A stretch of 64,000 nucleotides of DNA from Halorussus amylolyticus. Lineage in GTDB: Archaea > Halobacteriota > Halobacteria > Halobacteriales > Haladaptataceae. The stretch is taken from assembly GCF_004143485.2 (NCBI RefSeq), contig NZ_ML974131.1, positions 117,867 through 181,866 on the forward strand, given 5' to 3'. Position 1 is the first letter of the stretch, and every line of letters begins with the position of its first letter. Below the pieces are notes generated by a model, which was not told the DNA's origin, ran no database searches, and was given only the letters and a program-made list of their open reading frames with translations. Shown piece after piece: positions 13,151-35,539 of this stretch. The position numbers and the translations under genes were made by a program.

Positions 13151-13335
13151 AGCGCGCTGTGAGTGCATGGCTTACACGGGTAATTTGAGCGGATTCGCTC
13201 GTCAGTGGTCTGGTCCCTGCAGCTCATTTTGGGCTCGTGTAGCGTGGTTCAATGCCGATGCGGAGGTTTGAACATGTTCATCTGTTAGGAGGTGCCATTC
13301 AATGCAAACTTTCAAGGACTGTTCTTACCTACCGC

Positions 13336-16799: not shown

Positions 16800-17123
16800 A
16801 TGAATCCGACAGACCTGAGCGAGCGTGTAGAAGCACATGTGCATGACCGGCACGAGAGGATGGCAATTATTGGCTTTGATTCGGTTGATGACGAGTACAC
16901 AGTCTTCGACCTAATTGGAGAGTTACGAGAGCTCTTCCCATCGTATCAAGTACGGTTACTTCGACCGTCCGAAAGGGATACTACTGATGCTCCTAGTATT
17001 GTGTTTGTGGCTGACAAATCTCAGTTGAGCGAGGACAACGTAGCGCCAGGGACAGTTTACCTCATCGATAATACTAACAACCTCAAACGAGAACTCGTCC
17101 GATATACCATAGACAATGACTAA
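16800..17123 (+). CDS. Small hypothetical protein of the PglZ operon (107 aa)
   Basis: Acidic protein with alternating strand and helix predictions: MAIIGFDSVDDEYTVFDLIG, PSIVFVADKSQ and GTVYLIDNTNNLKREL. The pattern resembles a small Rossmann or receiver-like alpha/beta domain without obvious catalytic residues. It starts one base after the upstream stop and its end overlaps the ATPase gene by 8 nt, so tight co-expression is certain even though the function is not. Not recognised as BrxF or any other named component. Confidence 0.65.
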   Translation: MNPTDLSERVEAHVHDRHERMAIIGFDSVDDEYTVFDLIGELRELFPSYQVRLLRPSERDTTDAPSIVFVADKSQLSEDNVAPGTVYLIDNTNNLKRELVRYTIDND

Positions 17124-20100: not shown

Positions 20101-21039
20101 CTTGCTGAAGAACTACCCGATGATGACAAGCACCTCTTGTATTTGATTGAGCAGCCGTTACGTACCCTGCTCAGTGAACTCGAAGACGCGCAGTCAGCTA
20201 TTCGAACACGGAAAAAGCTCCACGACCACCTTGATGTACTAACTGCGTTCCCTGACGATTTTGATCGGTCTGAGTTAGAGAATCCTGATATCCCGATCAT
20301 GACAAAGGTGGCGTCGCATACCGAATCCAGTGATCCTCGCAATACTATTGCGAATGCCACGATTCAAGAGGATCTTGGAGCACTCTTCGACGATAGTTCG
20401 GAGACGACTGTCGACGATGTACTGCCTGGCCTCAAACAGACAATCAATAACCTTGTTCCAGATACGTCAGACGAAGACGATGAGGCGGCCGATTACGATG
20501 AACTAGAAAAACAGCTCGAAGAAGATATTGAAACAGTAGATACACGGATAGAGGCGCTTCGATCACAGTATCACGAACAGGTGGAAGATGATCAGCAGTG
20601 GGCGAACGATCTGCAAAGAGAGTTCCTCAGTGAACCTGGTCGACTTGGAAGTGCTCGCAGCAATCTTGACCAGTGCTACAATGCGTTGGATGTCTCTAAC
20701 GATGAGCTCCCGGAAGCAGAAACGTTTAGCCAAAACTGGCGGCGGTGGCAAGAACTGGAACAGCAGATCAAAGAAGATCTCTTAGAGAACGATACGGTCA
20801 TCAGTCGAATCCCCGACTTCGTTGAGGACATTGACGGAGAGGACATAGCTCGTGCAACCGATACCGATGTCCCTGAGGTGATCAACCAGTTAAGTGATGA
20901 GGAGTTCAAACAGCTACTAGAAGGAACGACTCATGAGCAACTCCAAGCCTTCTTTGTGGCGCAACGCGTGCTTCAACGCATGGAGGACGACGAGCAGGAC
21001 GATGAAGAGCTTGAACAACCAGCTGAGGTGGATCAATGA
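17116..21039 (+). CDS. Large P-loop ATPase of the PglZ operon (1307 aa)
   Basis: Walker A GAYGSGKT at 77-84, preceded by TKTRRQVLNGITEQLADEEA, and a Walker B-like GIYVDEFEQL near 219-228. The rest is long, very acidic and helical, with coiled-coil segments after about residue 1000. Size and an N-terminal ATPase with a huge tail recall BrxC/PglY, the ATPase that accompanies PglZ in BREX, but I cannot prove orthology by eye. The DEFEQL box and the conserved segment before the P-loop suggest an AAA-like ORC/STAND-type ATPase. It overlaps its neighbours on both sides (8 nt and ATGA), so it is expressed with PglZ and HerA. Confidence 0.8.
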   Translation: MTKAQAKENTLRLLQVTTIDGFQDEADQLCEEQDLPTLEAFRQDGSPVIITKTRRQVLNGITEQLADEEASGVVLSGAYGSGKTLLRYAIQSLCEGPATFDGEDFEQIQYGRKEIDCIEVSVHKNLTPADFLQSIYQGLVEAGSSISEEDLLEAYTDNRRRLTFHALREEIQDEYIDTWRDPQSLEELAELIKELQTGEAVKTIEWFTSKYEDIEGHVPGIYVDEFEQLHRERQNRPDDEFDPRTLRISQILLRNAVDPDSEVPYILFANTFKFDRMGEYLGIERDDLERAQDAIHYPIDLTFDETVDLFNKLYRMYAQQILPDYSATEEWLATLSSADEDSDDYIYPFTQNTVRFVVSFVDTVELGDIEVVQSFRDVKDILVELLREWDCESDRIIDMEFLYQNGDTVRNSARNNIVNLQNFPGSERVVTTIESDYQQASDYHTNVIKILTKAGMLKESPDPSIDEDQQYFTLDGTIEIAESAGVPLTDEDEVAEVWETASARDYYSLESDRLLFNRERFIETSKGEITRSLEQQVQLDVEDHQLSSKSLLSLWSQFLDSETGGEVTTAEEDDYLIYNPDRGNFLETLYISFGESVPPSLDEKTIEDEPQLEMVLAFTPAEDDNELPVEVSCETVDCEPLSLNAPEIEENFVSFFEDEFETHFTEDHYVELLDAIKEEYDEYSEFEAYTLFLKLGLQNELLEDSLSERLRQQVVQRSLFDLSGLSRTATRSKQFCYRTLGFEYQDYNAGELRDAVYAVRHYGDFGNSLYYDEAMLEEGPDAGISRARQSPEEFRSFVDNKLSEEQFVNGDTLQPDYTDRMDAIMTRIAQNVDQTEDDEAVTYADVVETIFGVRDLSRLQSYAEVGIYLVLAIGDVLEQGRWRINDDVDQAAEITVEPPLDAEAKYEDVRDGLQGTIEKVVLDKAAENDAESNIDDLQTKLGEISPDDQIAHLSRIEEEHVVPWEGDYEEIIDRIDDVRSDDAYEDTPVSQYLSILAEELPDDDKHLLYLIEQPLRTLLSELEDAQSAIRTRKKLHDHLDVLTAFPDDFDRSELENPDIPIMTKVASHTESSDPRNTIANATIQEDLGALFDDSSETTVDDVLPGLKQTINNLVPDTSDEDDEAADYDELEKQLEEDIETVDTRIEALRSQYHEQVEDDQQWANDLQREFLSEPGRLGSARSNLDQCYNALDVSNDELPEAETFSQNWRRWQELEQQIKEDLLENDTVISRIPDFVEDIDGEDIARATDTDVPEVINQLSDEEFKQLLEGTTHEQLQAFFVAQRVLQRMEDDEQDDEELEQPAEVDQ

Positions 21040-22286
21040 TCATTGGCGGTGACAATGAAGAGTTAGCTGGATATATCGGCCGCCAGTTTGAATCCGATGA
21101 ACTTCTTCAAGAACAGGTTCATCTAGATTTCAACGCGCCCCACATGATCACCGTGTGTGGGAAGCGTGGGACCGGGAAATCCCATACGCTCGGTGTCCTC
21201 ATGGAGGAGCTGATGCAGCTTCCCCGCGCAGCGAGGGATAATCTCACAGGCCTTGTCGTCGATGCGATGGGGATCTATTGGAGTCTCCAGGTCGAAACAA
21301 GAGAACCTGACCTGCTCGCTGACTGGGATATTTCACCAGATGACTTTCCGGTCACGGTCTACTACCCCGCCGGACTGGAGGAAAAATACGAAGACGTCAG
21401 CGAGTATTTCCATGAAGGCTTTGAGCTCTACCCATCAGAACTCTCAGTGGATGATTGGTTATATCTTCTCGACATTGATGAGACACAGGCCCAGGCGGGA
21501 TTACTCTCTGAGGTTATTGAGCTGACTGAAGATGAGTTTGGCTCCTTCTATGGCCTGGGCGATCTCACGCAGAAAATCGAAGAATCAGATGAAAGCTCCA
21601 ATGTCAAAGAAGCACTTCTCCGACGGCTAGAGAAAGCAAAGTCATGGGGGATCTTTAGCGCCTCAGGAAGCCGTATCGATGAAATTGTCACAGGTGGCGA
21701 CTTTGTCATCCTCGACCTGAGCGGTGCGGGGGCGCTTCCATGGAACGTCCGGACCATGCTTACCGGCATTTTGGTCCGGAAAATGTACAACCAGCGGAGT
21801 TTCGAGCGGAGCCGCGAGGAAGTCAGCCGGATTAAAGGCCAATTCTCAGAAAGCGAATTCCCCCTTATCTGGCTCTTCCTCGATGAGGCACATCTCTTTG
21901 CCCCATCCGGTTCAAAGGAGCCGAGCACAGAACCACTGGTCGAATGGGTACGACAGGGCCGCCGTCCAGGGCTTTCACTCGTCATGGCGACCCAACAGCC
22001 AGGCGCTCTCGACTCGCGGATTCTCTCCCAGTGTGACACCCTTATCATCCATCGACTTACTGCAGGTAAAGACTCTGAAGCAGTCGGTGACCGTATCTCA
22101 GAGCTGCACAACACCCGTCAAATAAGTCACTACATGGAACAGATTCCTAAAGACCCTGGCTACGCCTACGTGATGAACGACGATTCGGAAAAAATTGTAC
22201 CTGTCAAGATTCGACCGCGACAGAGCTGGCACGCAGGGGGCAGTGCAAAATTAGAGGAATATCTGAATCTCACCGAGTCAAGCTAA
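21036..22286 (+). CDS. HerA-like (DUF87) hexameric ATPase
   Basis: A 416-aa protein. Walker A VCGKRGTGKSHT is at 40-51, Walker B LIWLFLDEAHLF mid-protein, and the HerA/VirB4-type block EPLVEWVRQGRRPGLSLVMA leads into TQQPGALDSRILSQCDT, which carries the arginine finger region. HerA-FtsK ATPases move along or pump double-stranded DNA and usually drive a partner nuclease or effector. Here it is the last gene of the PglZ operon, with an ATGA overlap with the large ATPase. No NurA-type nuclease is adjacent, so the partner is probably in the operon itself. Confidence 0.9.
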   Translation: MIIGGDNEELAGYIGRQFESDELLQEQVHLDFNAPHMITVCGKRGTGKSHTLGVLMEELMQLPRAARDNLTGLVVDAMGIYWSLQVETREPDLLADWDISPDDFPVTVYYPAGLEEKYEDVSEYFHEGFELYPSELSVDDWLYLLDIDETQAQAGLLSEVIELTEDEFGSFYGLGDLTQKIEESDESSNVKEALLRRLEKAKSWGIFSASGSRIDEIVTGGDFVILDLSGAGALPWNVRTMLTGILVRKMYNQRSFERSREEVSRIKGQFSESEFPLIWLFLDEAHLFAPSGSKEPSTEPLVEWVRQGRRPGLSLVMATQQPGALDSRILSQCDTLIIHRLTAGKDSEAVGDRISELHNTRQISHYMEQIPKDPGYAYVMNDDSEKIVPVKIRPRQSWHAGGSAKLEEYLNLTESS

Positions 22287-22583: not shown

Positions 22584-24155
22584 CTATTGTATCTCCGCCA
22601 GCGGTTTTTCCTGCCGCAACCGCTTGCTCACAAGTACGACATCCACCTGCTTCCGCTCCCCATCCTTCTCATACTCCAGTTTCTGCTCAGCAAAGTCCAC
22701 GGAAAGCATTCCATCGTGGTAGCCTTGCCGGGCGTATTCCCGCAGGGAGTCCCGGTCCCCCCACTCCCATGCGAGAACCGTATCGATAGTTTCGAGTGGC
22801 TTGTCGTCGGCAAAGTGGTCCTCAACCTGGAGATAGACGGACGTCGGTTTGAGGTCATCACCGTCCCGGATGAAAGATGCCACTTCGTCGTTCGGCCGGT
22901 AATCTGCAACTTCGATTTCTTTCACCCCAGATTTCCGGTTTGATCGTTCTAGCGCGAGGACGAGCTCTGCACGGTTCTCCGGGACGAAATCGGTTCGCTT
23001 CGCAAGCCGCTCACGCCGTTGTGCCACCGAGTCCGACTGCGACTGCGCTTTCCGGTTGAGCTCACCCTGCCGGCGCGCCTCCATATATTCAAGGAACCAC
23101 GGATGACTGCACACCTTCGAGAGATAATGCCGGACCTCTTCAACCAACCGTTGGTAGACGTTACTGCTCTTATTCCGGATTTTCCCCCTGTTGGCAGAGA
23201 GTTCGATGTCTTGGCAGTTCACGATGAACATCAAGTGGGTATGTTCAACGTTGTCCGGTACCGCCTCGTTCAACTGCTCCACTTTGATGTGGTCCTTGGC
23301 AAGCCAGACACCGAACTGGGCCGAATGCTTTCCGTACGTCGCAAGTTCATTCCGCGCCTCCTTGCCAGCGACCATACCGACGATCTCCACTTCGGACGTC
23401 CCGCCTTCGTGTTCAACCTCGATAACACGGCCACCCTCCGACGGGAAATGTTTGCACATCCGTTCTGCCGGGAAGTCACCATCTCCGGGCTCAAGTTGCT
23501 CGTCCGGGAAAGTGAAGTTTGAGTCTATTTCGAGTTTGCCTTTGGTATCATCGATCTCCTCATCGAGATCGACCTCGATTTTCATGTCGTGATGGTTATC
23601 CTCGAAGAAGTGCGCAGTCGAGCCAGCGATGGTCTTCCACTTCAGATAGTGTTCTATCTTATTGTAGGTCAGTGATTCGGGGCCTAACCCTTGGCCGGAG
23701 CGGAATCCACTGATTCTGATAAGCGTACCGTCTCTACCCTTACGTGACGGGGTTTCCGTAACAGTGTATTCCGGGAGTTCCTTGTTGTTGAGCTTGCGCC
23801 ACGGGTCCTTCATTTCCGCGTGGAGCGTCGTGCCGTCCCTCGACGTGTTCACGACGATTTCATCACTTTTGTAGAAGATCTTTGTCCCGTGGCCTTTGTA
23901 ACCGATGGCATCCTCTTTGCGGGAGTTCCCCAAGTCGAAGAACGATTCCAGGTCCTGGCGGCTCATCCCGCCACCGTCGTCCTCGATCACGATATCGGAC
24001 CCGTGGGGCCGTTCCCTGATGGTGAATTCGACGTGGGACGCATTGGCGTCGTATGCGTTTGACAGTGATTCGCGGATGACTTCGAGCGGATCTTCAAAGT
24101 CGCTCGCGATTTCCAGAAATTCGTTAACCTCGTTGACCTTCGGTTGCTGTTTCAT
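22584..24155 (-). CDS. GHKL (Hsp90/MORC-type) ATPase
   Basis: A 523-aa protein. The N-terminal 200 residues contain the GHKL ATP site: N-box RESLSNAYDANAS with Glu29, Asn33 and Asp36, the G1 box IEDDGGGMSRQDLE at 58-70, and the G2 box GYKGHGTKIFY at 85-95. The middle resembles an Hsp90/MutL transducer domain; the C-terminus is charged. MORC-like GHKL ATPases are frequent partners in prokaryotic defence loci. ATG 24155 is preferred because GGAGGG lies 10 nt before it; a TTG six codons upstream overlaps the previous gene. One base separates it from the transglycosylase gene, so it is the last gene of that operon. Confidence 0.85.
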   Translation of the reverse strand: MKQQPKVNEVNEFLEIASDFEDPLEVIRESLSNAYDANASHVEFTIRERPHGSDIVIEDDGGGMSRQDLESFFDLGNSRKEDAIGYKGHGTKIFYKSDEIVVNTSRDGTTLHAEMKDPWRKLNNKELPEYTVTETPSRKGRDGTLIRISGFRSGQGLGPESLTYNKIEHYLKWKTIAGSTAHFFEDNHHDMKIEVDLDEEIDDTKGKLEIDSNFTFPDEQLEPGDGDFPAERMCKHFPSEGGRVIEVEHEGGTSEVEIVGMVAGKEARNELATYGKHSAQFGVWLAKDHIKVEQLNEAVPDNVEHTHLMFIVNCQDIELSANRGKIRNKSSNVYQRLVEEVRHYLSKVCSHPWFLEYMEARRQGELNRKAQSQSDSVAQRRERLAKRTDFVPENRAELVLALERSNRKSGVKEIEVADYRPNDEVASFIRDGDDLKPTSVYLQVEDHFADDKPLETIDTVLAWEWGDRDSLREYARQGYHDGMLSVDFAEQKLEYEKDGERKQVDVVLVSKRLRQEKPLAEIQ

Positions 24156-24156
24156 G

Positions 24157-25401
24157 TTAGAAGTACCCTCCAAGTGATTCGTTCACGACGCGATGCGCAT
24201 GCCTCCGTGTCGAGTCTTCTCGGCCGACCGTGGCATCGATGTAATCAATCAGCGGATCCGTCTCACCCTGCTGGATCAGTTCACGGATGCGCTCGACGGC
24301 GCGCTGTTGGACAATGTAATTGTGCACGGCGACAGGACCCATGATGTCCTTCCGATACTGGGCATTCCCCTGCATCCGGCTCACTAGCTCATCCGAACTG
24401 CAGACCGGACAGTTACACTGGCCGAAATCTGCATCGTCGACATTGATGAACTTCGTCAGTGATGTGGCGTATTTCCCGTTGATGCCACTCTGCAGATACG
24501 ATGACGAATCGAACGTGTCGACGCCGAGTGCAGCCAACAAGGGAATCGCTCCGTTCGAGATGCCTAACACGTGGAGCGGGAGGTCCGCAATCCCGTTCTC
24601 CGCCATTACCTCTTTACAGCCGAGTACCGCGTCAATCAACGCGTCCCGGTCGTCTTTTTTCGGGACCAAGCCACCGAGCGCGATACCGTCGAACAGCTCG
24701 TGTATGGACTGATCGCCGAACTCGTCCTGCATCGTCGACACGAACGTATCGATCATTGAGTAATCGTAGCCGTGGAAGGTGAGATATCGGGCACCCGGAT
24801 GGTCGGCGGCAAGATCCGCAAACTGGAGCGCGTCCTGCCCCGTCTGTTGAGCCTTTGCGACACGGTCTTCATAGGTATCTTCCGGTGAAATCGGCCGGTC
24901 CAGATTCACGAGGATGTCTCCACCCATCTTTTGTTGCATGTCGAAGACCGCATCTTGGTCCATGTCAATCTGAAAGTCACTCCCGTCAAGCCCTCCGCGC
25001 TGGAGAATCTGGAACCCACCAGAATCGATGAAGAGCATCCCGTTGAACTTGTCGAAGACAGGCCGGGCTTTGATCGGCTCCGAAAGATAGTCCCGCAATA
25101 CGTTTCGGCTGATTCCGTACTCGGTGAGGGACGACACCGTCATCATCGCAGCGTCGAAGTAATCGCTGCAATCAACGCTATCAACCCGGTCAGCACCGAT
25201 CATCAGTTCCTTGATTGTCCGGTGGGTGCTCCCCCCGAACATGCTTTCTGCCCGGCCACCACCATAGAAATTCACGACGGGGAAGAGGTTCGGCGTCTCG
25301 ATGGTGGCCGTCCCTGCGGACAATACGCCTGCTCGTGCTTTGCCGGCGGTTTCCGTGATGTCGAATGAGACCGACGAAGCAGTATTGGCGAACTGGCTCA
25401 T
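24157..25401 (-). CDS. DpdA-like 7-deazaguanine DNA transglycosylase (TGT superfamily), short form
   Basis: A 414-aa TIM-barrel TGT-family enzyme. Key residues are present: DSGGFQ at 126-131 with Asp126, the substrate loop GIALGGLVPK at 239-248, the nucleophile region GVDTFDSSSY with Asp298, and a zinc site Cys329, Cys331, Cys334 and His360 (CNCPVC then VHNY). tRNA TGTs swap guanine for a 7-deazaguanine; DpdA relatives do this in DNA. The early sequence NLFPVVNFYGGGR replaces the usual tRNA-TGT start (TPvfMPVGT), and no PUA domain is attached, which favours a DNA-acting subfamily. It overlaps the DUF6884 gene by ATGA. The chromosomal archaeosine TGT would be a separate gene. Confidence 0.85.
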   Translation of the reverse strand: MSQFANTASSVSFDITETAGKARAGVLSAGTATIETPNLFPVVNFYGGGRAESMFGGSTHRTIKELMIGADRVDSVDCSDYFDAAMMTVSSLTEYGISRNVLRDYLSEPIKARPVFDKFNGMLFIDSGGFQILQRGGLDGSDFQIDMDQDAVFDMQQKMGGDILVNLDRPISPEDTYEDRVAKAQQTGQDALQFADLAADHPGARYLTFHGYDYSMIDTFVSTMQDEFGDQSIHELFDGIALGGLVPKKDDRDALIDAVLGCKEVMAENGIADLPLHVLGISNGAIPLLAALGVDTFDSSSYLQSGINGKYATSLTKFINVDDADFGQCNCPVCSSDELVSRMQGNAQYRKDIMGPVAVHNYIVQQRAVERIRELIQQGETDPLIDYIDATVGREDSTRRHAHRVVNESLGGYF

Positions 25402-25856
25402 GCTTCACCGGCGAGACGGTCCGTGTTGCCACGGATGATGTTCTTTAATTCATGCCCACGCTCTCCAAGACTACCACCAAGTGTTTTGACGGTAGCATCG
25501 ACACGGGAATCAATACCAGCGACAGCACGGCGATACGTCTTTCCGAGGTTCAGAATCACCGTCTCGTACCCACCGTTTTGGACCCGTGTTTCCAGTTCCG
25601 GGACCACGTCCGACTGAAGCTCGTCTGCCCGTTCCCGACTCATCTTCCTATCATATGATAATACTTTGTCATTTGTGTCCAACAATCCGTATTCAGCTGA
25701 GAGGATGCAGATATCGATGTCCTCGTCGAACTCACCTTGTCGAATCGCTTTCTTGATAATTTTGTAGTAGTATCCAGAGTACAACTCAAACGCCTCAACC
25801 GGTTCAGATGTCGGTTTTTTGGACTTAGAGCACCCCTGGACTAAGAGGGTTGGCAT
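25398..25856 (-). CDS. DUF6884/YaaA-like protein, candidate 7-deazaguanine tailoring enzyme
   Basis: A 152-aa protein. Hallmarks are LVQGCSKSKKPT at 4-15, AFELYSGYYYKIIKKAIRQG, ICILSAEYGLLDTNDKVLSYD and a C-terminal NLGKTYRRAVAG. These match DUF6884, a group related to YaaA (DUF328). In bacterial Dpd clusters DpdC is a YaaA-fold protein that converts incorporated preQ0 to the amide, so a comparable tailoring role is a reasonable inference here. It overlaps the DpdA-like gene by four bases. The same CSK motif recurs at the C-terminus of the neighbouring 670-aa enzyme. Confidence 0.75.
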   Translation of the reverse strand: MPTLLVQGCSKSKKPTSEPVEAFELYSGYYYKIIKKAIRQGEFDEDIDICILSAEYGLLDTNDKVLSYDRKMSRERADELQSDVVPELETRVQNGGYETVILNLGKTYRRAVAGIDSRVDATVKTLGGSLGERGHELKNIIRGNTDRLAGEA

Positions 25857-25921
25857 AGGTTCCTCTTTCGGTCACTTCATCTTGGTTCTTTTGGTCTGCC
25901 GGAGCCGCGAAGAAGTTGGAA

Positions 25922-27934
25922 CTACTCTAAGTCGCCAAGCGTTGCATCGACTGAGACGTTCATATGATCCGTGAGTTCACGGATGTTTGCGTTCCGGAAG
26001 TGCTCCCGGAACCGCCGGGCACGCGGATCACGGGGGAAGACAGTTCCAGCCCTATGTTCGGTGAACGCATCCTCGATAACTTGCCGATAGTTCTTGCTCG
26101 TGGCATAGCCGACGATTTCATCGTACTGTCCACCGAAGACGTTGAGATACTCTGTGAGTCGTTCAGTCACGAGTTGGACCTGCTTTTCGTCTTCCGCAGA
26201 GAGGACGTATTCGTACTCTTTTATCGCTGGCTCTTCTTCGAACTCTTCCGGTACCGGTCCATACATGCCGGATACGGTTACCTTATGAACCGACTCCCGA
26301 ATCGGCGTCAGTTTGTTGAGTACCGCTCGCTGCGTCTGTGACTCTGCGTATGGCTTCGTTTTGCTACACGGAAGAACCAAGAGATATTCTCTTTCCGGCG
26401 GTGTGTAGTTCCGCGTTAGAACATTGAAATCACTCGGGCTGTGTTCCAGCGAAATCGTCCGTTGGTCCTCTATCTCATCGATACCCACATTGAAGTCCGA
26501 AAGCTTGGCTTGATCACTCGCGACGTCCGGACCCGGAAGTAGTTCGTACGCATCGCGTGCTTCAATATCCCGTTGGAGCTGCGAATCTCGGACTTGCGCT
26601 TTCTTCAGCCCCCGACGGATATCAGCGTCCTGTTGCGCGAACTCGATGACATAGTCCAGCAATCGTCCGTCCGCTATTGCCTGTTGTACTTCGCGGATTT
26701 CCCGATTGTAGACTTCGAAGTTGTGCCGGGCAAGCCAGCCGTAGTATTTGCTTTTCGTGAACCCGTCTACGCCATAGGTTGGTTCGCGTTGCAGGTACTC
26801 GTTGAGTTTGTCAGGTGTAAGTGGGTGCCCTTCTTCATCGGTTGCTGGTCCATCGTCACTGCAAAGCGGACAATCCGGAATATCACAGGGAAACGTATTA
26901 TCTCCGGTATACGTTGTAAGCTCGGAGAGCTTGAGATGGTTCCATTCACCGGGAATGAGATACTTAGCGTACTGTGCTGTCTGCATATGGGAGGAGCAGT
27001 CGAACGTATCAACCCCTAGTAAAGATAGAAGAGACGCCTGTTTGCCACCGACGCCAAATACGTGGAGGGCAATCTCGTCTCGCCGCTCCTCGGAAATCGC
27101 GTCAATCGCACCCTGAACGATATCGACGAGAACATCTACTTTACTCCGCAGTGGGACTAAGGAACCGATGGCGAATCCTTGGAACGGTTGTTCTACCCCC
27201 TCTTCTTCGATCCGCTCCAAGAAATTCATGACATACCAATGGATAGTATCGTAATCGTGGCCGTGGATCGCGACGAAAACAGCGGGTTCATCCTGCTGTT
27301 TCTGTGCCTTGAGATTCTGGACGCTCTTCTTGTCTGCCTCGCTACGGATCTCAATCTCGTCCGGGTTCTCGATTAGCTTGAGGCAGCGAACGGCGCTCTC
27401 GATACTTTGTTCCATCCGATCTTCCTGTTCGTCGACGTTGAGATCCGGAGGAATCGGATAATCCAAAGTTGCGATAATGTCTGCGCCAAAGTCGGCTTGC
27501 AGTTTGAGGATACTGTCCGGATTCGTGTAAAGGCGCCAATCATTCTGCTCGTCGCCTTCGGCTGGCGGGTCGCCAAACGTCTTCGAGTTCATCAGCTTGA
27601 ACCCGCCAGAATCGATGAAGATCGGGGCGTTCACATCAACACGGTCCTCGAAATGCTCCCGAAATGTCTTCTCCCGCCAGTCAGCGAGGTTATCGGCGGT
27701 AAGCCCGTAGTCCAAGAAACTCATCGCCTGGAACATTATTCCCTGGAGATCGTCCTCGTCAAGGATGTTATCCCGGAAATGTCGCCACGAACTTCCCGAA
27801 TCCAACGTGGTTCCACCGATGAGATTGATCACGGGAAACAGAGCCGGGGTCTGCACTGCTCCATTCCTGACCGAAAGCCTCCCCAGCCGACCATACCCGT
27901 CATCCCCGTCCTGAAGAATAGAGAACTCAGTCAT
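25922..27934 (-). CDS. DpdA/ArcS-like fusion: TGT domain plus DUF5591-type domain
   Basis: A 670-aa protein. Residues 1-420 are a TGT barrel with FIDSGGFKLM (Asp108), AIGSLVPLRSK, GVDTFDCSSHMQTA (Asp312) and a zinc site Cys350, Cys355, Cys358 and His404. Residues about 512-670 begin YLLVLPCSKTKPYAESQTQ, the signature of the DUF5591 domain found in archaeosine synthase ArcS, which acts on preQ0 nitrile in tRNA. The enzyme may therefore insert and also tailor a base. Two full TGT active sites within 4 kb, each next to a CSK-motif domain, is unusual. A gap of 65 nt precedes the DUF6884 gene downstream in the same operon. Confidence 0.83.
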   Translation of the reverse strand: MTEFSILQDGDDGYGRLGRLSVRNGAVQTPALFPVINLIGGTTLDSGSSWRHFRDNILDEDDLQGIMFQAMSFLDYGLTADNLADWREKTFREHFEDRVDVNAPIFIDSGGFKLMNSKTFGDPPAEGDEQNDWRLYTNPDSILKLQADFGADIIATLDYPIPPDLNVDEQEDRMEQSIESAVRCLKLIENPDEIEIRSEADKKSVQNLKAQKQQDEPAVFVAIHGHDYDTIHWYVMNFLERIEEEGVEQPFQGFAIGSLVPLRSKVDVLVDIVQGAIDAISEERRDEIALHVFGVGGKQASLLSLLGVDTFDCSSHMQTAQYAKYLIPGEWNHLKLSELTTYTGDNTFPCDIPDCPLCSDDGPATDEEGHPLTPDKLNEYLQREPTYGVDGFTKSKYYGWLARHNFEVYNREIREVQQAIADGRLLDYVIEFAQQDADIRRGLKKAQVRDSQLQRDIEARDAYELLPGPDVASDQAKLSDFNVGIDEIEDQRTISLEHSPSDFNVLTRNYTPPEREYLLVLPCSKTKPYAESQTQRAVLNKLTPIRESVHKVTVSGMYGPVPEEFEEEPAIKEYEYVLSAEDEKQVQLVTERLTEYLNVFGGQYDEIVGYATSKNYRQVIEDAFTEHRAGTVFPRDPRARRFREHFRNANIRELTDHMNVSVDATLGDLE

Positions 27935-28053: not shown

Positions 28054-28617
28054 TTACTTTTTGTTCCAGCCACTAACCTCTCGCTGTTCAAAGTCTTCAA
28101 CGCCGAGGAACTCGGTGATGTTTTCCTGCAAAATCCGATGATGTTCGTACAATGTCCGCTTCGTATCGTCACTGTGCCCAGCTAGCTTAATCTTGTCCAC
28201 CATGCGCGAGAGGTGGTCAAGCTTCTGCTTTGTCCGATTGTACGGTTCTGACCGGAACTCGCGTTCATCCTCCGAAACTAGCTGAATTTCGCCGTCCGGG
28301 TCGTCCACGTTGATCGTCGACGCAGTCGGGACATCCTCAATTTCATGGTCGAAATTAAGGTATGGCGTATGGTGGGTGAGCAGTGCCTGCTCGGCACTGT
28401 CTCGCTCTGACGTCCCCCACCACTCGATATACGCGATATCCCAGATATCCAGTCGGCCGTAGCTCACGACACTCGAGTCCTGCCGGACGAAATGCTGTCG
28501 CAACCGACTCCGGAGTTTACTGCTCTGCCCAGCATACGCTGGCACACCGTCCAGATCAAACAGACAGTACACACCAGGCGTCTCGGTTGGCACTGAACGG
28601 ACCTTCTCTGAAAGCAT
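28054..28617 (-). CDS. GIY-YIG nuclease-domain protein
   Basis: A 187-aa protein. The nuclease core is N-terminal: GVYCLFDLDGVPAYAGQS gives GVY (15-17) and YAG (28-30) in place of GIY and YIG. Arginines at 36, 38 and 40, Glu76 (SAEQALL) and Asn88 complete the UvrC/Slx1-type active site. The C-terminal half is charged and helical (RTKQKLDHLSRMVDKIKLAG). It is first in the minus-strand cluster with the transglycosylases, separated by about 120 nt. It may be the restriction nuclease that cuts DNA lacking, or carrying, the modified base; that is inference from context. Confidence 0.82.
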   Translation of the reverse strand: MLSEKVRSVPTETPGVYCLFDLDGVPAYAGQSSKLRSRLRQHFVRQDSSVVSYGRLDIWDIAYIEWWGTSERDSAEQALLTHHTPYLNFDHEIEDVPTASTINVDDPDGEIQLVSEDEREFRSEPYNRTKQKLDHLSRMVDKIKLAGHSDDTKRTLYEHHRILQENITEFLGVEDFEQREVSGWNKK

Positions 28618-29147
28618 CGTGTTCCACGTCTCTCAACGAGTTATTCAACCTTCCGCCGCCCCGACCACGGTCAAATCATCCTGCCACAGTTTCCCGGAGT
28701 GATGCCATAAGACCGGTACTCTGTTTCCAGCCTGTCACTGCACAGTGGGACGTTTGCTCATTGACCCCGCTCGCTATTCGTATGCACGGTGATGACACCC
28801 GATGCATCCTCCATCGGCTTGCCAGAGAGGACCGGGAAGTAATGGCTCGGGACGCAGATCAGTACGGTCGGCGTCGAGGAACCTGTGACCATCCCAGACC
28901 GTGACTAATTCATCCACATGTTCGCGTCCGGCCCGACTCGGACACAATCGACGTCGAAATCGAGTTCGAGAGCCGCGAAGCGATACGACGATCTGGTCAC
29001 ATAAAAAGATAGAAGCTGGCTATTAGGACAGTTCGTATTCACGGGTCAGAACGCGAATACAAGTGATTCAGGGACCTCCCACCCAAATTATATGTTATCA
29101 TTACGAGATGGACTAGAACTAAGTTACTCAACAAGCTATTGGGGGTT
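28618..29147. promoter_or_regulatory. Divergent promoter region
   Basis: About 530 nt between the leftward modification cluster and the rightward helicase-nuclease gene. No ORF is convincing. A TATA-like aattatatgtt near 29086-29096 lies about 55 nt before the helicase ATG. The transition in GC within it suggests junctions between modules of different origin. Confidence 0.45.
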
Positions 29148-32100
29148 ATGCCAAATGCCAGTGATTTGCGGAGAGAAATAGGTCCAATTAGTCCGACTGC
29201 GCTCGGTTCGTTTGTGAAGCTTGAACGTTGCGACCAGTATTTGGGTTGGAAGTATCTCGCTGAAGATTTATTGGGGGATGATGAACGATTCGAGGAATCT
29301 ATCCTGAGTCCTCTTTATTCGGAAACAGGAACTCGATTTGAAGCAGACCAATTATGTGCACTTCTAGAGCAGGAACTTACGGAGAAAGTAATCACGCCGG
29401 AGGACGACGCGCCGGAAAGCGTTTCCCCTGACCAGACTTGGGAAGAAGACGCCCCTTCGGATGAAGAGGGTGAACCGGATACATGGGAATCCGCACTCGA
29501 TACGCTACTGAATCAAATAAAATATGTGATAGAATCGGAGGACTTCGATCCAATTGTTTGTTTCCAACCAACTTTATTGGGGAAGGCTGGTTCGTGGTCA
29601 ATTTCGGGGAAAGCAGATATAATCGTCGTCCGGCCGCCTAGAATGGGGACAGATGAATCAGGTGCTGTGATTGTTGATATCTTGGAAGTCAAAGCCTCAC
29701 CAGAAGAACAAACTCACCACCGGATTCAGGCTGCCTGTTATAGCAAAATAATCAAAAACGCGATCGAGGCTGATGCCGACATTGAGTCTTCCGTTGCTAT
29801 CGAGAGCCGTGTCGTTCACCGTGATAACGCCATTGACCGCATTGGGTATCGGAATATCGAGCCTTTTGATCTTGAACCGACAGAAACTGACATTGAATTA
29901 CTTCTTCGATCTGGGGGGCGGGTCGATTCAATTGTCTTCGATAGTGGAGACGGCGAGTTCGATCCGTCGAATGCCACCCGTGTTGAGCCCTGGGAAATGT
30001 TCAACCGAATGTCTCGCCGCTGTGCAGGATGCTCGTTCCACGATGTCTGTTATACCCGTGCAGTAGAGGAAGACGGATTAGAACTCCTCGGCTTTCCGGA
30101 GGGGACCCAAGAAGACCTCGCAGAGGTTGGGATTGAAACGCTCGGTGATTTGGGAAGCCTTGTAGAATACGATGAGCACATGAGCCCTTCGGATCGGACA
30201 GATGATCAGGTCTGGGTGCAGGATGTACCCCAGTTTGAGCAAGTCCGTGATGAAATCGGTATAAAAGATCTTGAACGATATTGCATTGCAGCCGACGTAT
30301 TTTCTACGGAAAACTCTCCAAATCGACCAGCAGAAAGGACATACATCCCTGACAGCGGATTTAATTTACCGAAAGGAAGGGTCGAAGACTCACCGCTTCC
30401 GGATTCCCTTACGTTTTATGCCGACGAATCACTGATACGAGTTTATCTATTTGTTCAGGAAGACAATATACGAGATCGGTTGGTTCTACTAGGGGGCCAC
30501 GTTACAAATCACGATACGGGAGAACGACGGTGGATTTCAGCGATTTCAGACTCACTGCCTGGGGCTGACCCTGAGGAGGAGTGGAGTTACGACGAACTGG
30601 AGAATGCGAAAGACGAAGTCGAAGCGAACCTATTACGGCAGTTCCTCCGCGGAACGGATGAGAAGTTGGGGCTCGTCGATGCAATTCAGGAAGTTGCACC
30701 TGCTGACCTCGGCGATTTTGGAGATAATCTCGATAATCCTGGTTTCGTTCATCTCTATTTCTATTCTCCTGGACAACGGGATGCTCTCACTCGGGCTACG
30801 AAGCGGCATTTTGATGAAGGGGAGGAGTTTGAAGCGCTTCGAACACTCCTTGGATTGCGAGGCGAGATTGGTGAGCGTAATATCGACCAGGAAATGGTCT
30901 CCGTTCTCCATGAAGATTTTGTTTCTCGTCATCTCCTGCGATTCCTGGGCTTCGGGACAGTGCAAACAGTAGAACAATTCGAACGTCCAGATCCTGCCAA
31001 ACATGATGGCCCTCCAACCTACCGTAACTGGGAAGATGACCGGAGATTTGAATGGATGCACGAATTTGAGGGAGATCTAGCTCCAGTACACTTCGTTTTT
31101 AGAGAGCATTTCTTTGATAATGCAGTCGACTATGATGAGGGCGCACGAGAGCCACTCGCCGTTGAAGATGGCCTTGTTCAGACAGACACCAGTAACAATT
31201 ATGCTGATCAATTCCCCTTTGCCCATCGACATGCTGACGCAATTCCACTGGAATACATCTGGGCCAGTTTTGATGAACTGACCCAGGATACTATTGATCC
31301 CGCCGCCTTCGATGACGAAGATAAATTAGCACGGCAACGAGAACTGGTTCGGCGGTTCCGGTATCTCCGTGGCGACCCAAACAGTATTCGTATCAACCAA
31401 CGCCATCTCCGTGCTTTAGCCGAGAAATTAGCTGAGGCGGTGGAACATATTGAGGCATCGATTATCGAATGGCATAAAAGCGCAGGGACGCCGAAACAAC
31501 CCTTACCGCTTGACGACCTTCTCTCACAAGGATTCGATGACTCGCTGTTGGAAATCACGGCTCGGGAGTATCTGGATTTAGAACATGGTTCGAAAGAACG
31601 GCAGCTGGTACGGGATTGGCGACAGTCAATCCCGTACCGAATTCAAGAGGATCAGTCAATCCTGTTTACCTGTACCTCACCGCCAGAGGACAACGACGGG
31701 ACCTATACGATCGAAGGAGAAATCGCTTATACCGGTGGGGGTGACGATACGCTAACCGAGACTAGTTTTTCGGAAGGCGATTGGGTGGTCATGACCCCTG
31801 TTGATGATACGCAAAATCCACCCGTTGAAATTGGGATTAACCGGGCAACTGACATCGGCCGAATGCCCCTCGTCCATATCACAGATATCACGGACGACAC
31901 GATCAGCGTTGCTGCCCCCTGGAATTCAGATGAGTGGAATTGGCCTATGCCCAAACATGACTTCATGAACGGCCATCATAGGTATCTACCCGCGGGCCAC
32001 CCACAGTTAGCCGCTGTTGACCCTAGTATCGAAGACCGCGACTACCATTACGACCCAATAGAGGGCGGTACGGACCGTGAACTTCGTTTCATTGATATGG

Positions 32101-34034
32101 AGGAGGGCGGAGGTCAAAACCAAGTCGTTGTGGACGAGGGGGCTACGTTTGTTCTCGATCGCGCATTAGATAACGTGACCAGCTATCATTGCTCACGAGC
32201 GTTAAATCTAAGTGATGATAATCATGTGCTTCACTGGTTGGACGACCTATTATCGGGGGATCGAGACGAGATGGAGACCAACTTCTGTAATGCCGATCTC
32301 GTCGCTCACGATCCGGAAGAATTAGACGAGGGAACCGAAGAAATCGAAGACCCTGAGAGTTTTGTCGACCGGTTTTTTGTGGACGCGGATTCCATCGATT
32401 TCGAGCCGAATTTTCATCAGCGCCGTGTAATCCGAGAGACAAACAGACATTTGGCTGTAGTGCAGGGGCCTCCTGGGACGGGCAAGACTAGTTACACTAC
32501 CACTCCGGCCGTTTTGGGCCGAGCATTTGCCCTAGCACAGGAGGGGCGGTCGTTTATTGGTGGAATCTCAGCGTTGTCGCATGATGCGGTCGATGAAGCC
32601 TTCTCCAAGATTGCGGCCGTGGCTAGTGACTGTCAAGACGATGGTTGTTTTGACCGGATGAAAATCATCCGCGCTCGCCCAAGTGACATCCCTGATAATG
32701 CGGTCCCCTATGATGAACGTGATGATGACCAGTTAGTCGAACATATCGCATATCATCAGGACGAGGGGGCTGACCGTCTTCGCACCCTTTACCAGGAATA
32801 TGTCCTTGATCCCTCTGAAGACGCGGATCCGACCCAGTTTCTTATCTGTGGTCCGCCAACCTCCATCCGAGGGGTCGTTGATAAGGTCGCCCGGTTGCTG
32901 GTTGACGTAGACGATCAGGATCATCCTGAGGGTGTCTGGAATCTTCTAGAAGAAGGAGAGGGAGACATTTTCGATTTCACGGTCGTTGATGAAGCGAGCA
33001 TGATGGATCTTCCGCAACTCTTCCTCGTTGGCGCGTTCCTTCGGGAAGAAGGCCAACTGCTTCTTGCTGGTGACCATCGCCAGATGCAACCCATCCAGCA
33101 TCATGGTTGGGAAAGTGAAACGCGTGAGACGATTGAGGAGACGATTCCGTTTCTGTCTGCCCTCGATTATATACGGTTCCTGAAAGGGGATATCGAAGAA
33201 ATCGACTTCATTGAACGAGAATCCCCGGAGTTGGATGTTGGTCTCACGAACGACCAACAAGAAGACGCAGTGCTTCCGATGTATCCGCTCGAAGAAACCT
33301 ATCGACTCCCTCAGCCTGTTGCGGATCTCCTGACGGAACTCTTCTATGATGATGATGGTATCCAGTTAACGGGCCGGAACGATCGTGATCCAATACCTAC
33401 TGTCGATGCTTCTCACGAGGTAATTGAGGAGCTTATCGATCCAAACGAGTGGGTTTCCGTATTAGTCCATTCGGGTTCTCGGGATGAGCGATTAAGTGAA
33501 CTTGAGGCTACGATAGCGGAAGAAGTACTGGCAGACTTTGACTTGGTTGCGCCAGAAGATGAGAACTTAGAGAATGATGAGATTTCTGCCGGAGTCGTTG
33601 TTCCGTTTACATCCCAGCGGGATCGCTTACAAGGGCAACTCGATAATGCTGTTCAGGCACAAACGGTCGAGAAGTTCCAGGGTGGTGAACGTGATCTGAT
33701 TCTGTTATCAATGGTCGCAAGCGACGCTGGGTACGTGAATATGCTAAGCGACTTCCTGCTGAGTCCGTACCGTTTCAATGTCGGGGCAAGTCGGATGAAG
33801 CGGAAATTAATTATTATTGCTTCGGAAGCCATCTTCCAGACATCGGATCCGGATGCGGATCAATATGATGACCAATCAGCATGGAAGCGGCTCTATCAAC
33901 TCATAGGTGCGCTTGATGAAGATATCGAACCGGCTGCGGAATCGGACGCTCACGAAATCGATCCCGCCCTTTCTGCCGACACCCACTGCCAGGTGTACCA
34001 CGCCCGACTTTCAGACAACGGAGGTAGAATTTAA
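29148..34034 (+). CDS. Cas4/RecB-like nuclease fused to DNA2/Upf1-type helicase (1628 aa)
   Basis: The N-terminus has PTALGSFVKLERCDQYLGW with a first cysteine and a PD-(D/E)XK core VDILEVKASPEEQTHHRIQA (about 173-195). A CAGCSFHDVC triad near residue 290-302 completes a four-cysteine iron-sulphur site as in Cas4 and AddB. After about 800 mostly unassigned residues comes an SF1B helicase: Walker A QGPPGTGKT at 1106-1114, DEASMMDL near 1280, GDHRQMQPI, LEETYRLPQPV, and VEKFQGGERDLILLSMVAS. Nuclease plus 5'-3' helicase suggests resection or degradation of DNA. ATG 29148 is preferred to the TTG three codons earlier. It probably acts with the adjacent modification genes. Confidence 0.88.
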   Translation: MPNASDLRREIGPISPTALGSFVKLERCDQYLGWKYLAEDLLGDDERFEESILSPLYSETGTRFEADQLCALLEQELTEKVITPEDDAPESVSPDQTWEEDAPSDEEGEPDTWESALDTLLNQIKYVIESEDFDPIVCFQPTLLGKAGSWSISGKADIIVVRPPRMGTDESGAVIVDILEVKASPEEQTHHRIQAACYSKIIKNAIEADADIESSVAIESRVVHRDNAIDRIGYRNIEPFDLEPTETDIELLLRSGGRVDSIVFDSGDGEFDPSNATRVEPWEMFNRMSRRCAGCSFHDVCYTRAVEEDGLELLGFPEGTQEDLAEVGIETLGDLGSLVEYDEHMSPSDRTDDQVWVQDVPQFEQVRDEIGIKDLERYCIAADVFSTENSPNRPAERTYIPDSGFNLPKGRVEDSPLPDSLTFYADESLIRVYLFVQEDNIRDRLVLLGGHVTNHDTGERRWISAISDSLPGADPEEEWSYDELENAKDEVEANLLRQFLRGTDEKLGLVDAIQEVAPADLGDFGDNLDNPGFVHLYFYSPGQRDALTRATKRHFDEGEEFEALRTLLGLRGEIGERNIDQEMVSVLHEDFVSRHLLRFLGFGTVQTVEQFERPDPAKHDGPPTYRNWEDDRRFEWMHEFEGDLAPVHFVFREHFFDNAVDYDEGAREPLAVEDGLVQTDTSNNYADQFPFAHRHADAIPLEYIWASFDELTQDTIDPAAFDDEDKLARQRELVRRFRYLRGDPNSIRINQRHLRALAEKLAEAVEHIEASIIEWHKSAGTPKQPLPLDDLLSQGFDDSLLEITAREYLDLEHGSKERQLVRDWRQSIPYRIQEDQSILFTCTSPPEDNDGTYTIEGEIAYTGGGDDTLTETSFSEGDWVVMTPVDDTQNPPVEIGINRATDIGRMPLVHITDITDDTISVAAPWNSDEWNWPMPKHDFMNGHHRYLPAGHPQLAAVDPSIEDRDYHYDPIEGGTDRELRFIDMEEGGGQNQVVVDEGATFVLDRALDNVTSYHCSRALNLSDDNHVLHWLDDLLSGDRDEMETNFCNADLVAHDPEELDEGTEEIEDPESFVDRFFVDADSIDFEPNFHQRRVIRETNRHLAVVQGPPGTGKTSYTTTPAVLGRAFALAQEGRSFIGGISALSHDAVDEAFSKIAAVASDCQDDGCFDRMKIIRARPSDIPDNAVPYDERDDDQLVEHIAYHQDEGADRLRTLYQEYVLDPSEDADPTQFLICGPPTSIRGVVDKVARLLVDVDDQDHPEGVWNLLEEGEGDIFDFTVVDEASMMDLPQLFLVGAFLREEGQLLLAGDHRQMQPIQHHGWESETRETIEETIPFLSALDYIRFLKGDIEEIDFIERESPELDVGLTNDQQEDAVLPMYPLEETYRLPQPVADLLTELFYDDDGIQLTGRNDRDPIPTVDASHEVIEELIDPNEWVSVLVHSGSRDERLSELEATIAEEVLADFDLVAPEDENLENDEISAGVVVPFTSQRDRLQGQLDNAVQAQTVEKFQGGERDLILLSMVASDAGYVNMLSDFLLSPYRFNVGASRMKRKLIIIASEAIFQTSDPDADQYDDQSAWKRLYQLIGALDEDIEPAAESDAHEIDPALSADTHCQVYHARLSDNGGRI

Positions 34035-34303: not shown

Positions 34304-35539
34304 TCACCCTTCTAACTCACATAGCTTCTCCAACACGCCCTGCTCCTCAAGCTCGGCTAACCGCTCCAGTATCTGCTGTTTCTCTTTCTGTTGGGTTTTC
34401 TGTTTTAGGCTGAGTGGTCTTCCGCAGTTCCGGCATTCACTGTGGCCTTGTTGGTTCTCTGTCCCACAGAACGGACAGTTGGCTGATTTCTCGTCGGTTT
34501 TCTTCCTGGTGAGTCCGTACTGGTCACGAATCGCTTGGTTGACATCGTCGTTGTTCAGATGGACGTACACTTTAGCGCGACTACTGCCTGGTACCCAACC
34601 TGCGAACTTGTTCAATTGCTCGTACCCCATGAAAGTCGCCACCTCGGTCAATCGGGTGTGCCGCAGATTGTAGGGTTTGCGCTTGTTCTCCGGGATATTC
34701 GCTCGTTCACACGCATCTTTGAATCGGCGCATGAATCCGTCGTACTTCAACGGGTCTGCCAAGTCGGGTTCGTAGTGACAGCTTCCATCATGGTCATAAC
34801 GTTTTCTCTCACAGTGTTTGCATCGTTGTTGTTCTGTTTTTATCCAGAGCGGCGCACTTGAATCGTTGATGTCACCGAGTTCACCTCCTAATGGGTGCTG
34901 GGCCAGCCATTCGCGCAGGGTTCGACCAGATCGCACTAACTGGTTTGTCCGGTCTGGCGTGTCTTTCATTCCTTCCAGGAAGATGAAGTCGCCTTTCTCG
35001 TTTGATGTGAAGTCAGCGATGCTTCGAGAAAGCATCTCGCCAGGGCGGGCCGCTGATTCGTACAGCATCATCGTAAACGCTCGATCACGGGTATTGGAGA
35101 AACTCTGGAACAATCGCTTGAGTTCATCATCGGTATAGAGGTCTTCACGGGTGACCTGGGTTGGTTTCTTTTTCTTTAATGAGATGAAGTTGACCTTGTC
35201 CGGGTGCTCATGGCCGCCGTTCTGTATCTTGTAGAACTTCTTGACGGTGCCACGCATGGTCCGCTTCGTAGCTTCAGCGTAGTCACTCCGGTTCAACCCG
35301 GCCATCAGCTGTTTGAGCTCCGGTTCGCTTGCTCCCTGGAGCCGAAAGTCCGCAGGTGCATACTTCTTCAACAGCGTTTTCAGAGACTGCGCATGGCGTT
35401 GCTGGCGGACATCGCTGAGTCCTTCCGCTGCGCAATGATCGATGAACTCCCGAATCGATTGAACGTTCTCCGGGTGGAGACTGCTTTCTTCGAGGTTTTG
35501 AAGGGTTCGTGAGACATTGACATACTGTGATGTAGACAT
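34304..35539 (-). CDS. Tyrosine recombinase with C-terminal zinc ribbon
   Basis: A 411-aa integrase. Catalytic residues: Arg165 (ESAARPGEML), Arg293 in YNLRHTRLTEV (the usual leading His is Tyr290), Trp315 (GWVPGSS) and nucleophile Tyr325 (KVYVHLN). An insertion around 240-254 holds CKHC and later CHYE, and the C-terminus has a ribbon CPFC then CRNC (355-372) followed by a coiled coil (QKEKQQILERLAELEEQG). This is a common haloarchaeal plasmid/virus recombinase type. The ATG at 35539 begins the natural N-terminus; the frame runs 16 codons further upstream. It lies mid-element, so it may be left from an earlier insertion or serve in resolution. Confidence 0.9.
   Translation of the reverse strand: MSTSQYVNVSRTLQNLEESSLHPENVQSIREFIDHCAAEGLSDVRQQRHAQSLKTLLKKYAPADFRLQGASEPELKQLMAGLNRSDYAEATKRTMRGTVKKFYKIQNGGHEHPDKVNFISLKKKKPTQVTREDLYTDDELKRLFQSFSNTRDRAFTMMLYESAARPGEMLSRSIADFTSNEKGDFIFLEGMKDTPDRTNQLVRSGRTLREWLAQHPLGGELGDINDSSAPLWIKTEQQRCKHCERKRYDHDGSCHYEPDLADPLKYDGFMRRFKDACERANIPENKRKPYNLRHTRLTEVATFMGYEQLNKFAGWVPGSSRAKVYVHLNNDDVNQAIRDQYGLTRKKTDEKSANCPFCGTENQQGHSECRNCGRPLSLKQKTQQKEKQQILERLAELEEQGVLEKLCELEG

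What the first reader, a model, noticed from the sequence alone, without database searches (positions are those of the whole stretch)
24157..27934. Two catalytic TGT paralogues, each tied to a CSK-motif tailoring domain
The 414-aa enzyme keeps Asp126, Asp298 and the Cys3-His zinc site, and overlaps a stand-alone DUF6884 gene (GCSKSKK). The 670-aa enzyme keeps Asp108, Asp312 and its zinc ligands, and carries an ArcS/DUF5591-like C-terminus (PCSKTKPYAESQTQ). DpdC (YaaA-like) and ArcS both act on preQ0 after insertion. The pair may make two different modified bases or work as a heterodimer, as eukaryotic TGT does.
Basis: partly seen in the sequence, partly recalled or inferred. Interest (0 to 1): 0.82.

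Follow-up and report, generated by a model that had tools for sequence, protein, structure and literature searches.

The report
Archaeal two-enzyme DNA base-swapping cassette
This salt-loving archaeon carries a small, widely shared gene set with two different enzymes of the kind that swap a guanine for a preQ0-type base, most likely to mark its own DNA as part of an antiviral restriction system, which would be a new archaeal version of a defence chemistry known in bacteria and viruses.

Summary
Both TGT paralogues, the overlapping DUF6884 gene and the DUF5591 (ArcS-type) C-terminus are at the stated coordinates, and both TGTs keep the catalytic aspartates and the zinc site. The pair is not an accident of this window. 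Of 394 haloarchaeal genomes, 37 carry both, 5 only the small one, 1 only the large one and 351 neither. In about half of the sampled islands preQ0-synthesis genes lie within about 25 kb. Next to the unit sits one of two interchangeable modules: DpdJ/DpdH-like genes (14 of 21), or PglZ-like + AAA + HerA (4 of 21, including the window). A tree places both TGTs together, outside tRNA arcTGT, ArcS, bacterial TGT and bacterial DpdA. All 20 relatives checked keep separate arcTGT and ArcS-like genes. Best reading: an archaeal, Dpd-like, preQ0-based DNA-modification cassette of a restriction-type defence island. Loci with only one of the two TGTs argue against an obligate heterodimer. The window's ArcS motif is imperfect (His→Gln), so its second chemistry is uncertain. 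DNA modification itself is inferred, not shown.

The parts
25922..27934 (-). TGT670: transglycosylase with intact active site (D108, D158, D312; zinc C350/C355/C358/H404) fused to a DUF5591 (ArcS core) domain; no PUA extension
   Evidence: Pfam, alignments, AF2 model pLDDT 79.7 with Foldseek top hit arcTGT 1iq8 E=2e-17
25398..25856 (-). DUF6884 protein (DpdC/YaaA-like), overlaps TGT414 by 4 bp; C9, S10, K13 invariant in the 18-sequence alignment
   Evidence: Pfam DUF6884 E=3e-13, PADLOC DpdC E=6e-8, alignment, profile match to N-terminus of long DpdA E=1e-6
24157..25401 (-). TGT414: transglycosylase with intact active site (D126, D168, D298; zinc C329/C331/C334/H360)
   Evidence: Pfam, alignments, tree
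22584..24173 (-). GHKL (Hsp90/MutL/MORC-like) ATPase, third gene of the DUF6884-TGT414-ATPase operon (ORF from TTG; an in-frame ATG at 24155 leaves a 1-bp gap)
   Evidence: Pfam HATPase_c_3 E=3e-12; within about 100 bp of, and usually overlapping, TGT414 in 20 of 20 loci; AF2 pLDDT 79.6, Foldseek Hsp90/MORC/MutL E about 1e-12 to 1e-11
28054..28617 (-). GIY-YIG domain protein, recurrent neighbour of the cassette; candidate nuclease
   Evidence: Pfam GIY-YIG E=5e-5; homologues beside the cassette in several other loci
13252..16050 (+). Module B: PglZ-like alkaline-phosphatase-superfamily protein
   Evidence: Pfam PF01663 E=5e-12; PADLOC PglZ E=4e-5; same module in L035, L062 and L082
16040..16798 (+). 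Module B: winged-helix (DUF7343) protein
   Evidence: Pfam E=1e-6; co-conserved
16800..17123 (+). Module B: 107-aa protein
   Evidence: a 104-106-aa gene at the same place in L035, L062, L082
17116..21039 (+). Module B: 1307-aa AAA ATPase; only P-loop-level similarity to DUF6079/BrxC
   Evidence: Pfam AAA_22 E=2e-4; no DUF6079 match in the genome; hhalign 56 columns only
21036..22286 (+). Module B: HerA-type translocase
   Evidence: Pfam DUF87 E=6e-12; PADLOC mad8/HerA
29139..34034 (+). MkoA-like superfamily 1 helicase, recurrent neighbour in several islands (accessory)
   Evidence: PADLOC MkoA E=5e-30; relatives in G101, G296, G364

Best explanation
The four genes TGT670, DUF6884, TGT414 and the GHKL ATPase form a mobile 7-deazaguanine DNA-modification cassette of haloarchaea, the modification half of a restriction-type antiviral island. 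preQ0 comes from the host pathway or from queCDE/folE genes lying in the island. The two TGTs exchange guanine in DNA for preQ0, probably at different sites or strands rather than as an obligate heterodimer. Inserted preQ0 is then fixed by tailoring: DUF6884, as DpdC does, would hydrolyse the nitrile to the amide (dADG) behind TGT414; the DUF5591 domain, as ArcS does on tRNA, would add to the nitrile behind TGT670, most likely lysine, which would also stop the reverse exchange. The MORC/MutL-like ATPase would act as an ATP-gated DNA clamp that presents DNA to TGT414, in the role that DpdB plays in bacterial Dpd. The neighbouring module (here PglZ-like phosphatase/nuclease, AAA ATPase and HerA translocase; elsewhere DpdJ/DpdH-like proteins) attacks DNA lacking the mark. 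Shown: genes, intact active sites, co-inheritance, phylogeny, domain content, module swapping, linkage to preQ0 genes. Inferred: DNA as substrate, chemistry of each tailoring step, ATPase role, and defence.
For: Conserved pair in 37 of 43 genomes that have either TGT, 394 searched. DUF6884-TGT414-ATPase is a tight co-directional operon in 20 of 20 loci that hold it, mostly with overlaps of a few bases. Distances among the four proteins correlate across 20 genomes (r 0.67-0.86). Tree: TGT670 and TGT414 are sister clades (99/97), outside arcTGT, ArcS, bacterial TGT and DpdA. arcTGT and ArcS-like genes are kept as well in 20 of 20 relatives and in the host, so the cassette is not the tRNA pathway. 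TGT670 lacks ArcS's C-terminal PUA extension. QueC, QueE, QueD and FolE lie in the islands; QueC is within about 25 kb in 11 of 20. The neighbour module is of Dpd type in 14 of 21 (DpdJ-like: hhalign E=2e-15; DpdH-like: 614 columns) and AAA/HerA with PglZ-like in 4 of 21. The same module A accompanies a bona fide long DpdA in Natronosalvus, so the cassette replaces DpdA in an equivalent position. The binding loop reads G-S/G-L-V-P, close to arcTGT and DpdA (VP), not the bacterial L-A-V-G-E loop. ArcS traps preQ0 in tRNA with lysine and blocks reversal (PMC11298593).
Against: No DNA analysis exists; substrate and product are inferred. In 5 of 9 islands with QueC next door it is the genome's only canonical QueC, so linkage does not prove a dedicated supply. 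The window island itself has no que genes and relies on the host copy on another contig. No DpdB homologue was found in the window. The window's ArcS motif has Gln for His. Module B proteins have only weak matches to BREX proteins.
Confidence: 0.72

Rival explanations
1. Obligate hetero-oligomer: TGT670 and TGT414 form one mixed enzyme, each subunit treating one strand of an asymmetric site, with both tailoring modules acting on the same product.
For: Sister clades, co-occurrence and correlated distances; TGTs act as dimers (established for bacterial, archaeal and eukaryotic TGT). Pairs of unlike TGTs recur elsewhere: long DpdA plus a small TGT in Picosynechococcus, Paenibacillus, Natronosalvus.
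Against: TGT414 without TGT670 in five genomes, TGT670 without TGT414 in G238 and in bacteria; genes often divergent and up to 180 kb apart (G002).
Confidence: 0.2
2. Both TGTs act on RNA: an accessory tRNA-modification system carried by a mobile island, for example making viral takeover of tRNA harder.
For: TGT fold and arcTGT-type profile scores.
Against: Outside the arcTGT/ArcS clade; the ArcS PUA extension is missing; arcTGT and ArcS-like genes retained in 20 of 20; constant company of HerA/DpdJ/DpdH/PglZ-type DNA-acting proteins, and of GmrSD in the TGT414-only loci.
Confidence: 0.1
3. The window locus is a haloarchaeal member of the published BREX-Related Capture (BRC) systems, and the TGTs are its optional modification part.
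For: PglZ-like, AAA, HerA and TGT genes together; BRC is described with PglZ, HerA and TGT, in three archaeal classes (PMC12839542).
Against: No DUF6079 match and only 56 aligned columns by profile; no DUF4007 or GNAT domain in the island's main proteins; BRC is reported without DpdC homologues whereas DUF6884 is present; 14 of 21 cassettes sit with a different module.
Confidence: 0.2

Closest known systems
Bacterial Dpd systems (DpdA-DpdB-DpdC plus DpdD-K)
   Same: TGT plus DUF6884; preQ0 genes linked; DpdJ/DpdH-like partner genes in 14 of 21 relatives
   Different: TGTs lie in another clade; two catalytic TGTs; a GHKL ATPase instead of DpdB; a DUF5591 fusion; archaeal; restriction module interchangeable with a PglZ/AAA/HerA set
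Long DpdA (with a DUF6884 part) plus small TGT systems of cyanobacteria, Paenibacillus and haloarchaeal plasmids (seen here: L105, L111, L112, L107)
   Same: two unlike TGTs plus a DUF6884 domain; module A shared in L112; the haloarchaeal small TGT is the nearest clade to the window's TGTs
   Different: DUF6884 fused to DpdA; no DUF5591; no GHKL ATPase detected
BREX-Related Capture (BRC) systems (Rakesh & Krishnan 2026, PMC12839542)
   Same: PglZ-like, HerA and TGT in one island
   Different: no DUF6079, DUF4007 or GNAT detected; DUF6884 present; two TGTs
Archaeal archaeosine pathway (arcTGT, ArcS)
   Same: TGT catalytic residues, arcTGT-like preQ0 loop, ArcS-type motif PC-X3-KPY-X2-S-X2-H in 18 of 21 relatives
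   Different: different clade, no PUA extension, TGT half of the fusion catalytically intact, extra to a complete tRNA set

Membership tests
Bacterial Dpd system | TGT belongs to the DpdA clade | tested here: not met
   DpdA/long DpdA separate at 100/100; window TGTs in another clade; NCBIfam DpdA 21.8 and 15.5 bits against a cut-off of 200
Bacterial Dpd system | DpdB (DGQHR/ParB-like) partner | tested here: not met
   none among the 19 window proteins scanned; hhalign of the GHKL ATPase with DpdB shows nothing
Bacterial Dpd system | DpdC / DUF6884 protein | tested here: met
   Pfam DUF6884 E=3e-13; PADLOC DpdC E=6e-8
Bacterial Dpd system | DpdD-K restriction genes | tested here: inconclusive
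   absent in the window; DpdJ-like and DpdH-like in up to 14 of 21 relatives, the other three genes of that module unassigned
Bacterial Dpd system | dPreQ0 or dADG in genomic DNA | not testable with these tools
   needs DNA mass spectrometry
BREX-Related Capture (BRC) | DUF6079 (BrxC-like) ATPase | tested here: not met
   no match in own genome; only 56 columns by hhalign
BREX-Related Capture (BRC) | HerA/FtsK translocase | tested here: met
   DUF87 E=6e-12
BREX-Related Capture (BRC) | PglZ | tested here: inconclusive
   PF01663 E=5e-12 but PADLOC PglZ only E=4e-5, NCBIfam PglZ below cut-off
BREX-Related Capture (BRC) | DUF4007, GNAT | tested here: not met
   no such Pfam match in the island proteins scanned
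BREX-Related Capture (BRC) | STAND NTPase | tested here: inconclusive
   no STAND match in the PglZ-AAA-HerA module; only a weak iSTAND/nSTAND match to the Cdc6-like 269-aa protein at 40473
arcTGT (tRNA archaeosine TGT) | falls in the arcTGT clade | tested here: not met
   arcTGT 99/94, window TGTs outside; TIGR00432 103 bits against a cut-off of 350
ArcS | PC-X3-KPY-X2-S-X2-H motif (recalled from Phillips 2010; seen in four ArcS here) | tested here: not met
   window has Gln for the final His; 18 of 21 relatives meet it
ArcS | C-terminal PUA extension | tested here: not met
   all TGT670 end after DUF5591
Eukaryotic-type heterodimeric TGT | one catalytically dead subunit | tested here: not met
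   both keep both aspartates

The most novel reading that the evidence does not exclude
Haloarchaeal chromosomes carry two distinct preQ0-derived marks written by two dedicated DNA transglycosylases, one of which is a single-chain 'insert and lock' enzyme (TGT + ArcS core) that makes a lysine-conjugated 7-deazaguanine or archaeosine in cellular DNA, loaded by a MORC-like DNA clamp and read by interchangeable restriction modules.
Probability: 0.25. Interest if true: 0.88.

Novelty: new variant of a known kind. Interest (0 to 1): 0.72.

Why it matters
If true, restriction based on 7-deazaguanine DNA marks, described in bacteria and known in archaea from tailed viruses (PMC6884629, PMC8651126), is also an archaeal cellular system, with two writers instead of one. 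It makes testable whether an ArcS-type domain can act on DNA, whether a MORC-like ATPase can replace DpdB, and how one modification cassette is paired with different restriction modules. It would also give haloviruses that carry DpdA a plausible host counterpart. I found no description of this cassette in the open papers searched; subscription papers and supplements were not available.

Tried and rejected
tRNA function: rejected as main reading (tree; arcTGT and ArcS-like genes kept in 20 of 20; PUA extension missing). ArcS as the source of the whole 670-aa protein: rejected, since ArcS's TGT half groups with arcTGT and has lost the residue at the D158 position. BREX/BRC membership of the neighbour module: tested, mostly not met. 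Relatives of TGT414 in phage records: none by tblastn at 1e-5. HVTV-1 candidate genes, including one beside folE/queE, gave no match to any TGT of the tree. Search of module A proteins f5, f6 and f10 against Enterobacter/Paenibacillus Dpd proteins: no match except DpdJ-like and DpdH-like. In the first tree one host arcTGT was read in the wrong frame and two long-branch small TGTs disturbed the grouping; both were corrected.
Full report
What is there. The DUF6884 gene overlaps the 414-aa TGT by 4 bp. The ATPase ORF overlaps the end of TGT414, or follows it by 1 bp if it starts at the in-frame ATG. Opposite, on the plus strand, lie a PglZ-like protein, a winged-helix protein, a 107-aa protein, a 1307-aa AAA protein and HerA. 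The window lies on a 632-kb contig of a haloarchaeal genome.

Active sites. In a joint alignment, both TGTs keep both catalytic aspartates, the base-recognition aspartate and the Cys3-His zinc site. All of these are invariant in the families except the zinc cysteines of TGT670, which one relative (L023) lacks. The loop that contacts the 7-substituent reads GS/GG-L-V-P, like arcTGT (G-A-V-V-P) and DpdA (V-P-L-K), and not the L-A-V-G-E of bacterial TGT. From established TGT structures this favours preQ0 over preQ1; that is inference. An AlphaFold2 model of TGT670 (pLDDT 79.7) matches arcTGT 1iq8 first (E=2e-17).

Tailoring domains. The 670-aa C-terminus is DUF5591, the ArcS core. The ArcS motif PC-X3-KPY-X2-S-X2-H, recalled from the literature and present in all four ArcS examined here, occurs strictly in 18 of 21 TGT670 relatives; in the window the last His is Gln. 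Every TGT670 stops after this domain and lacks the PUA-type extension of ArcS. ArcS transfers lysine to preQ0 in tRNA, and the lysine adduct is no longer exchanged by arcTGT (PMC11298593); this suggests a trapping role. DUF6884 matches DpdC models and the N-terminus of long DpdA.

Recurrence. Searching the same 394 haloarchaeal genomes with each TGT gives 37 with both, 5 with only TGT414, 1 with only TGT670 and 351 with neither (Fisher p=2e-45; genomes are related, so this is descriptive). In 40-kb neighbourhoods of 20 relatives the DUF6884-TGT414-ATPase operon is intact in 19, usually with overlaps of a few bases. TGT670 lies 0.5-12 kb away on either strand in those loci, and farther away in other genomes (up to 180 kb). 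Pairwise distances of the four proteins correlate (r 0.67-0.86; shared vertical ancestry would also contribute). The named scan finds the cassette in Halorubrum, Haloplanus, Natrinema, Natronosalvus, Halobellus, Halosimplex and others. Full TGT-DUF5591 fusions without TGT414 nearby occur in cyanobacteria and Chloroflexota.

Neighbours. Beside the cassette sits one of two modules that never co-occur in the sample. Fourteen of 21 have DpdJ/DruE-like helicase genes, mostly with a DpdH-like ATPase and three small genes; four of 21, including the window, have AAA + HerA, in three of them with PglZ-like and winged-helix genes seen in the stretch held. Module A also accompanies a long DpdA plus small TGT on a Natronosalvus plasmid, so this cassette takes the place of DpdA there. 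QueC, QueE, QueD and FolE genes lie in 9 of 20 neighbourhoods, and QueC in 11 of 20 within about 25 kb. In 5 of the 9 it is the genome's only canonical QueC, so it cannot be called dedicated there. The host of the window has its one clear QueC on another contig. In the TGT414-only loci the operon is followed by a GmrSD protein and preceded by a second DUF6884 gene; in Planktothrix the TGT670-like gene is followed by a GmrSD_N and a HEPN gene (the GmrSD and second DUF6884 were identified by Pfam in L176, the other loci share genes of the same lengths in the same order, and L179 was not seen to hold the second DUF6884).

Phylogeny. In the corrected tree (52 rows) TGT670 (99/94) and TGT414 (100/100) are sisters (99/97, with the bacterial fusions beside TGT670). 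They join the small TGT of haloarchaeal plasmids (100/98) and stand apart from arcTGT + ArcS (94/87), bacterial TGT and bacterial DpdA. The TGT half of TGT670 is therefore not ArcS's, and DUF5591 was joined to it separately. The host and all 20 relatives checked keep arcTGT plus an ArcS-like gene.

Mechanism. I read the cassette as the modification half of a Dpd-like restriction island acting on DNA (0.72). Both TGTs insert preQ0; DUF6884 makes the amide; the DUF5591 domain adds to the nitrile; the GHKL ATPase, whose model resembles Hsp90, MORC and MutL, acts as a DNA clamp. A split of labour between the TGTs (different sites, strands or marks) is favoured over an obligate heterodimer, because each TGT occurs without the other and the genes can be far apart. 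None of the chemistry is shown. In the window enzyme the ArcS motif change leaves open whether the second step works at all.

Comparison. It is not a member of bacterial Dpd by clade or by DpdB, nor of BRC by DUF6079, DUF4007 or GNAT, nor of the tRNA archaeosine pathway by clade or PUA. It works like Dpd. A published genome-mining survey that required dpdA and dpdB reports Dpd islands in eight bacterial phyla (PMC11888242), and such a search would miss this cassette. BRC is described as lacking DpdC homologues (PMC12839542), which differs from this locus. I rate it a new variant of a known kind.

Noticed in passing
L105:1074-7082, L111:7992-11966, L112:10007-14652, L107:5921-11002: Two unlike TGTs in one island recur in other systems: a long DpdA (690-970 aa) plus a separate 307-344-aa TGT, in cyanobacteria, Paenibacillus and haloarchaeal plasmids. 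Pfam sees DUF6884 in the long DpdA of L105 (N-terminus) and, just below cut-off, of L107 (C-terminus).
   Followed up: partly
L106:20001-24700: The Haladaptatus sp. YSMS36 plasmid carries two TGT670 paralogues (673 and 654 aa) beside one TGT414, with an MkoA-like helicase and a PLD-type protein.
   Followed up: no
L176:11942-19377 and equivalents in L177, L179, L180, L182: TGT414-only loci share a 310-aa unknown protein, (in most) a 149-aa second DUF6884 gene, the DUF6884-TGT414-ATPase operon and an 829-aa GmrSD protein: an apparently separate arrangement in which a modification-type operon sits with a GmrSD-type enzyme.
   Followed up: partly
L101:887-2783, L102:8568-10465: In two Firmicutes MAGs a TGT-like gene and a short DUF5591-like gene stand on opposite strands side by side, as if the TGT670 fusion were split.
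   Followed up: no
34304-38196: A tyrosine recombinase with zinc ribbon and a 658-aa FtsK/HerA-like protein follow the island; relatives of both lie near the cassette in L093, L181 and L184, suggesting a shared mobile element.
   Followed up: partly
9341-12732: A metallophosphatase and a coiled-coil AAA (SbcC/LmuB-like) pair upstream of the PglZ-like gene, resembling an SbcCD- or Lamassu-type pair; not conserved with the cassette in the relatives examined.
   Followed up: no
L107:4545-13037: The Haloarcula sinaiiensis plasmid island pairs QueE/QueD, a DpdA-like protein and a small TGT with an EVE-domain protein, a possible reader of modified bases, and a BREX-type ATP-binding protein.
   Followed up: no
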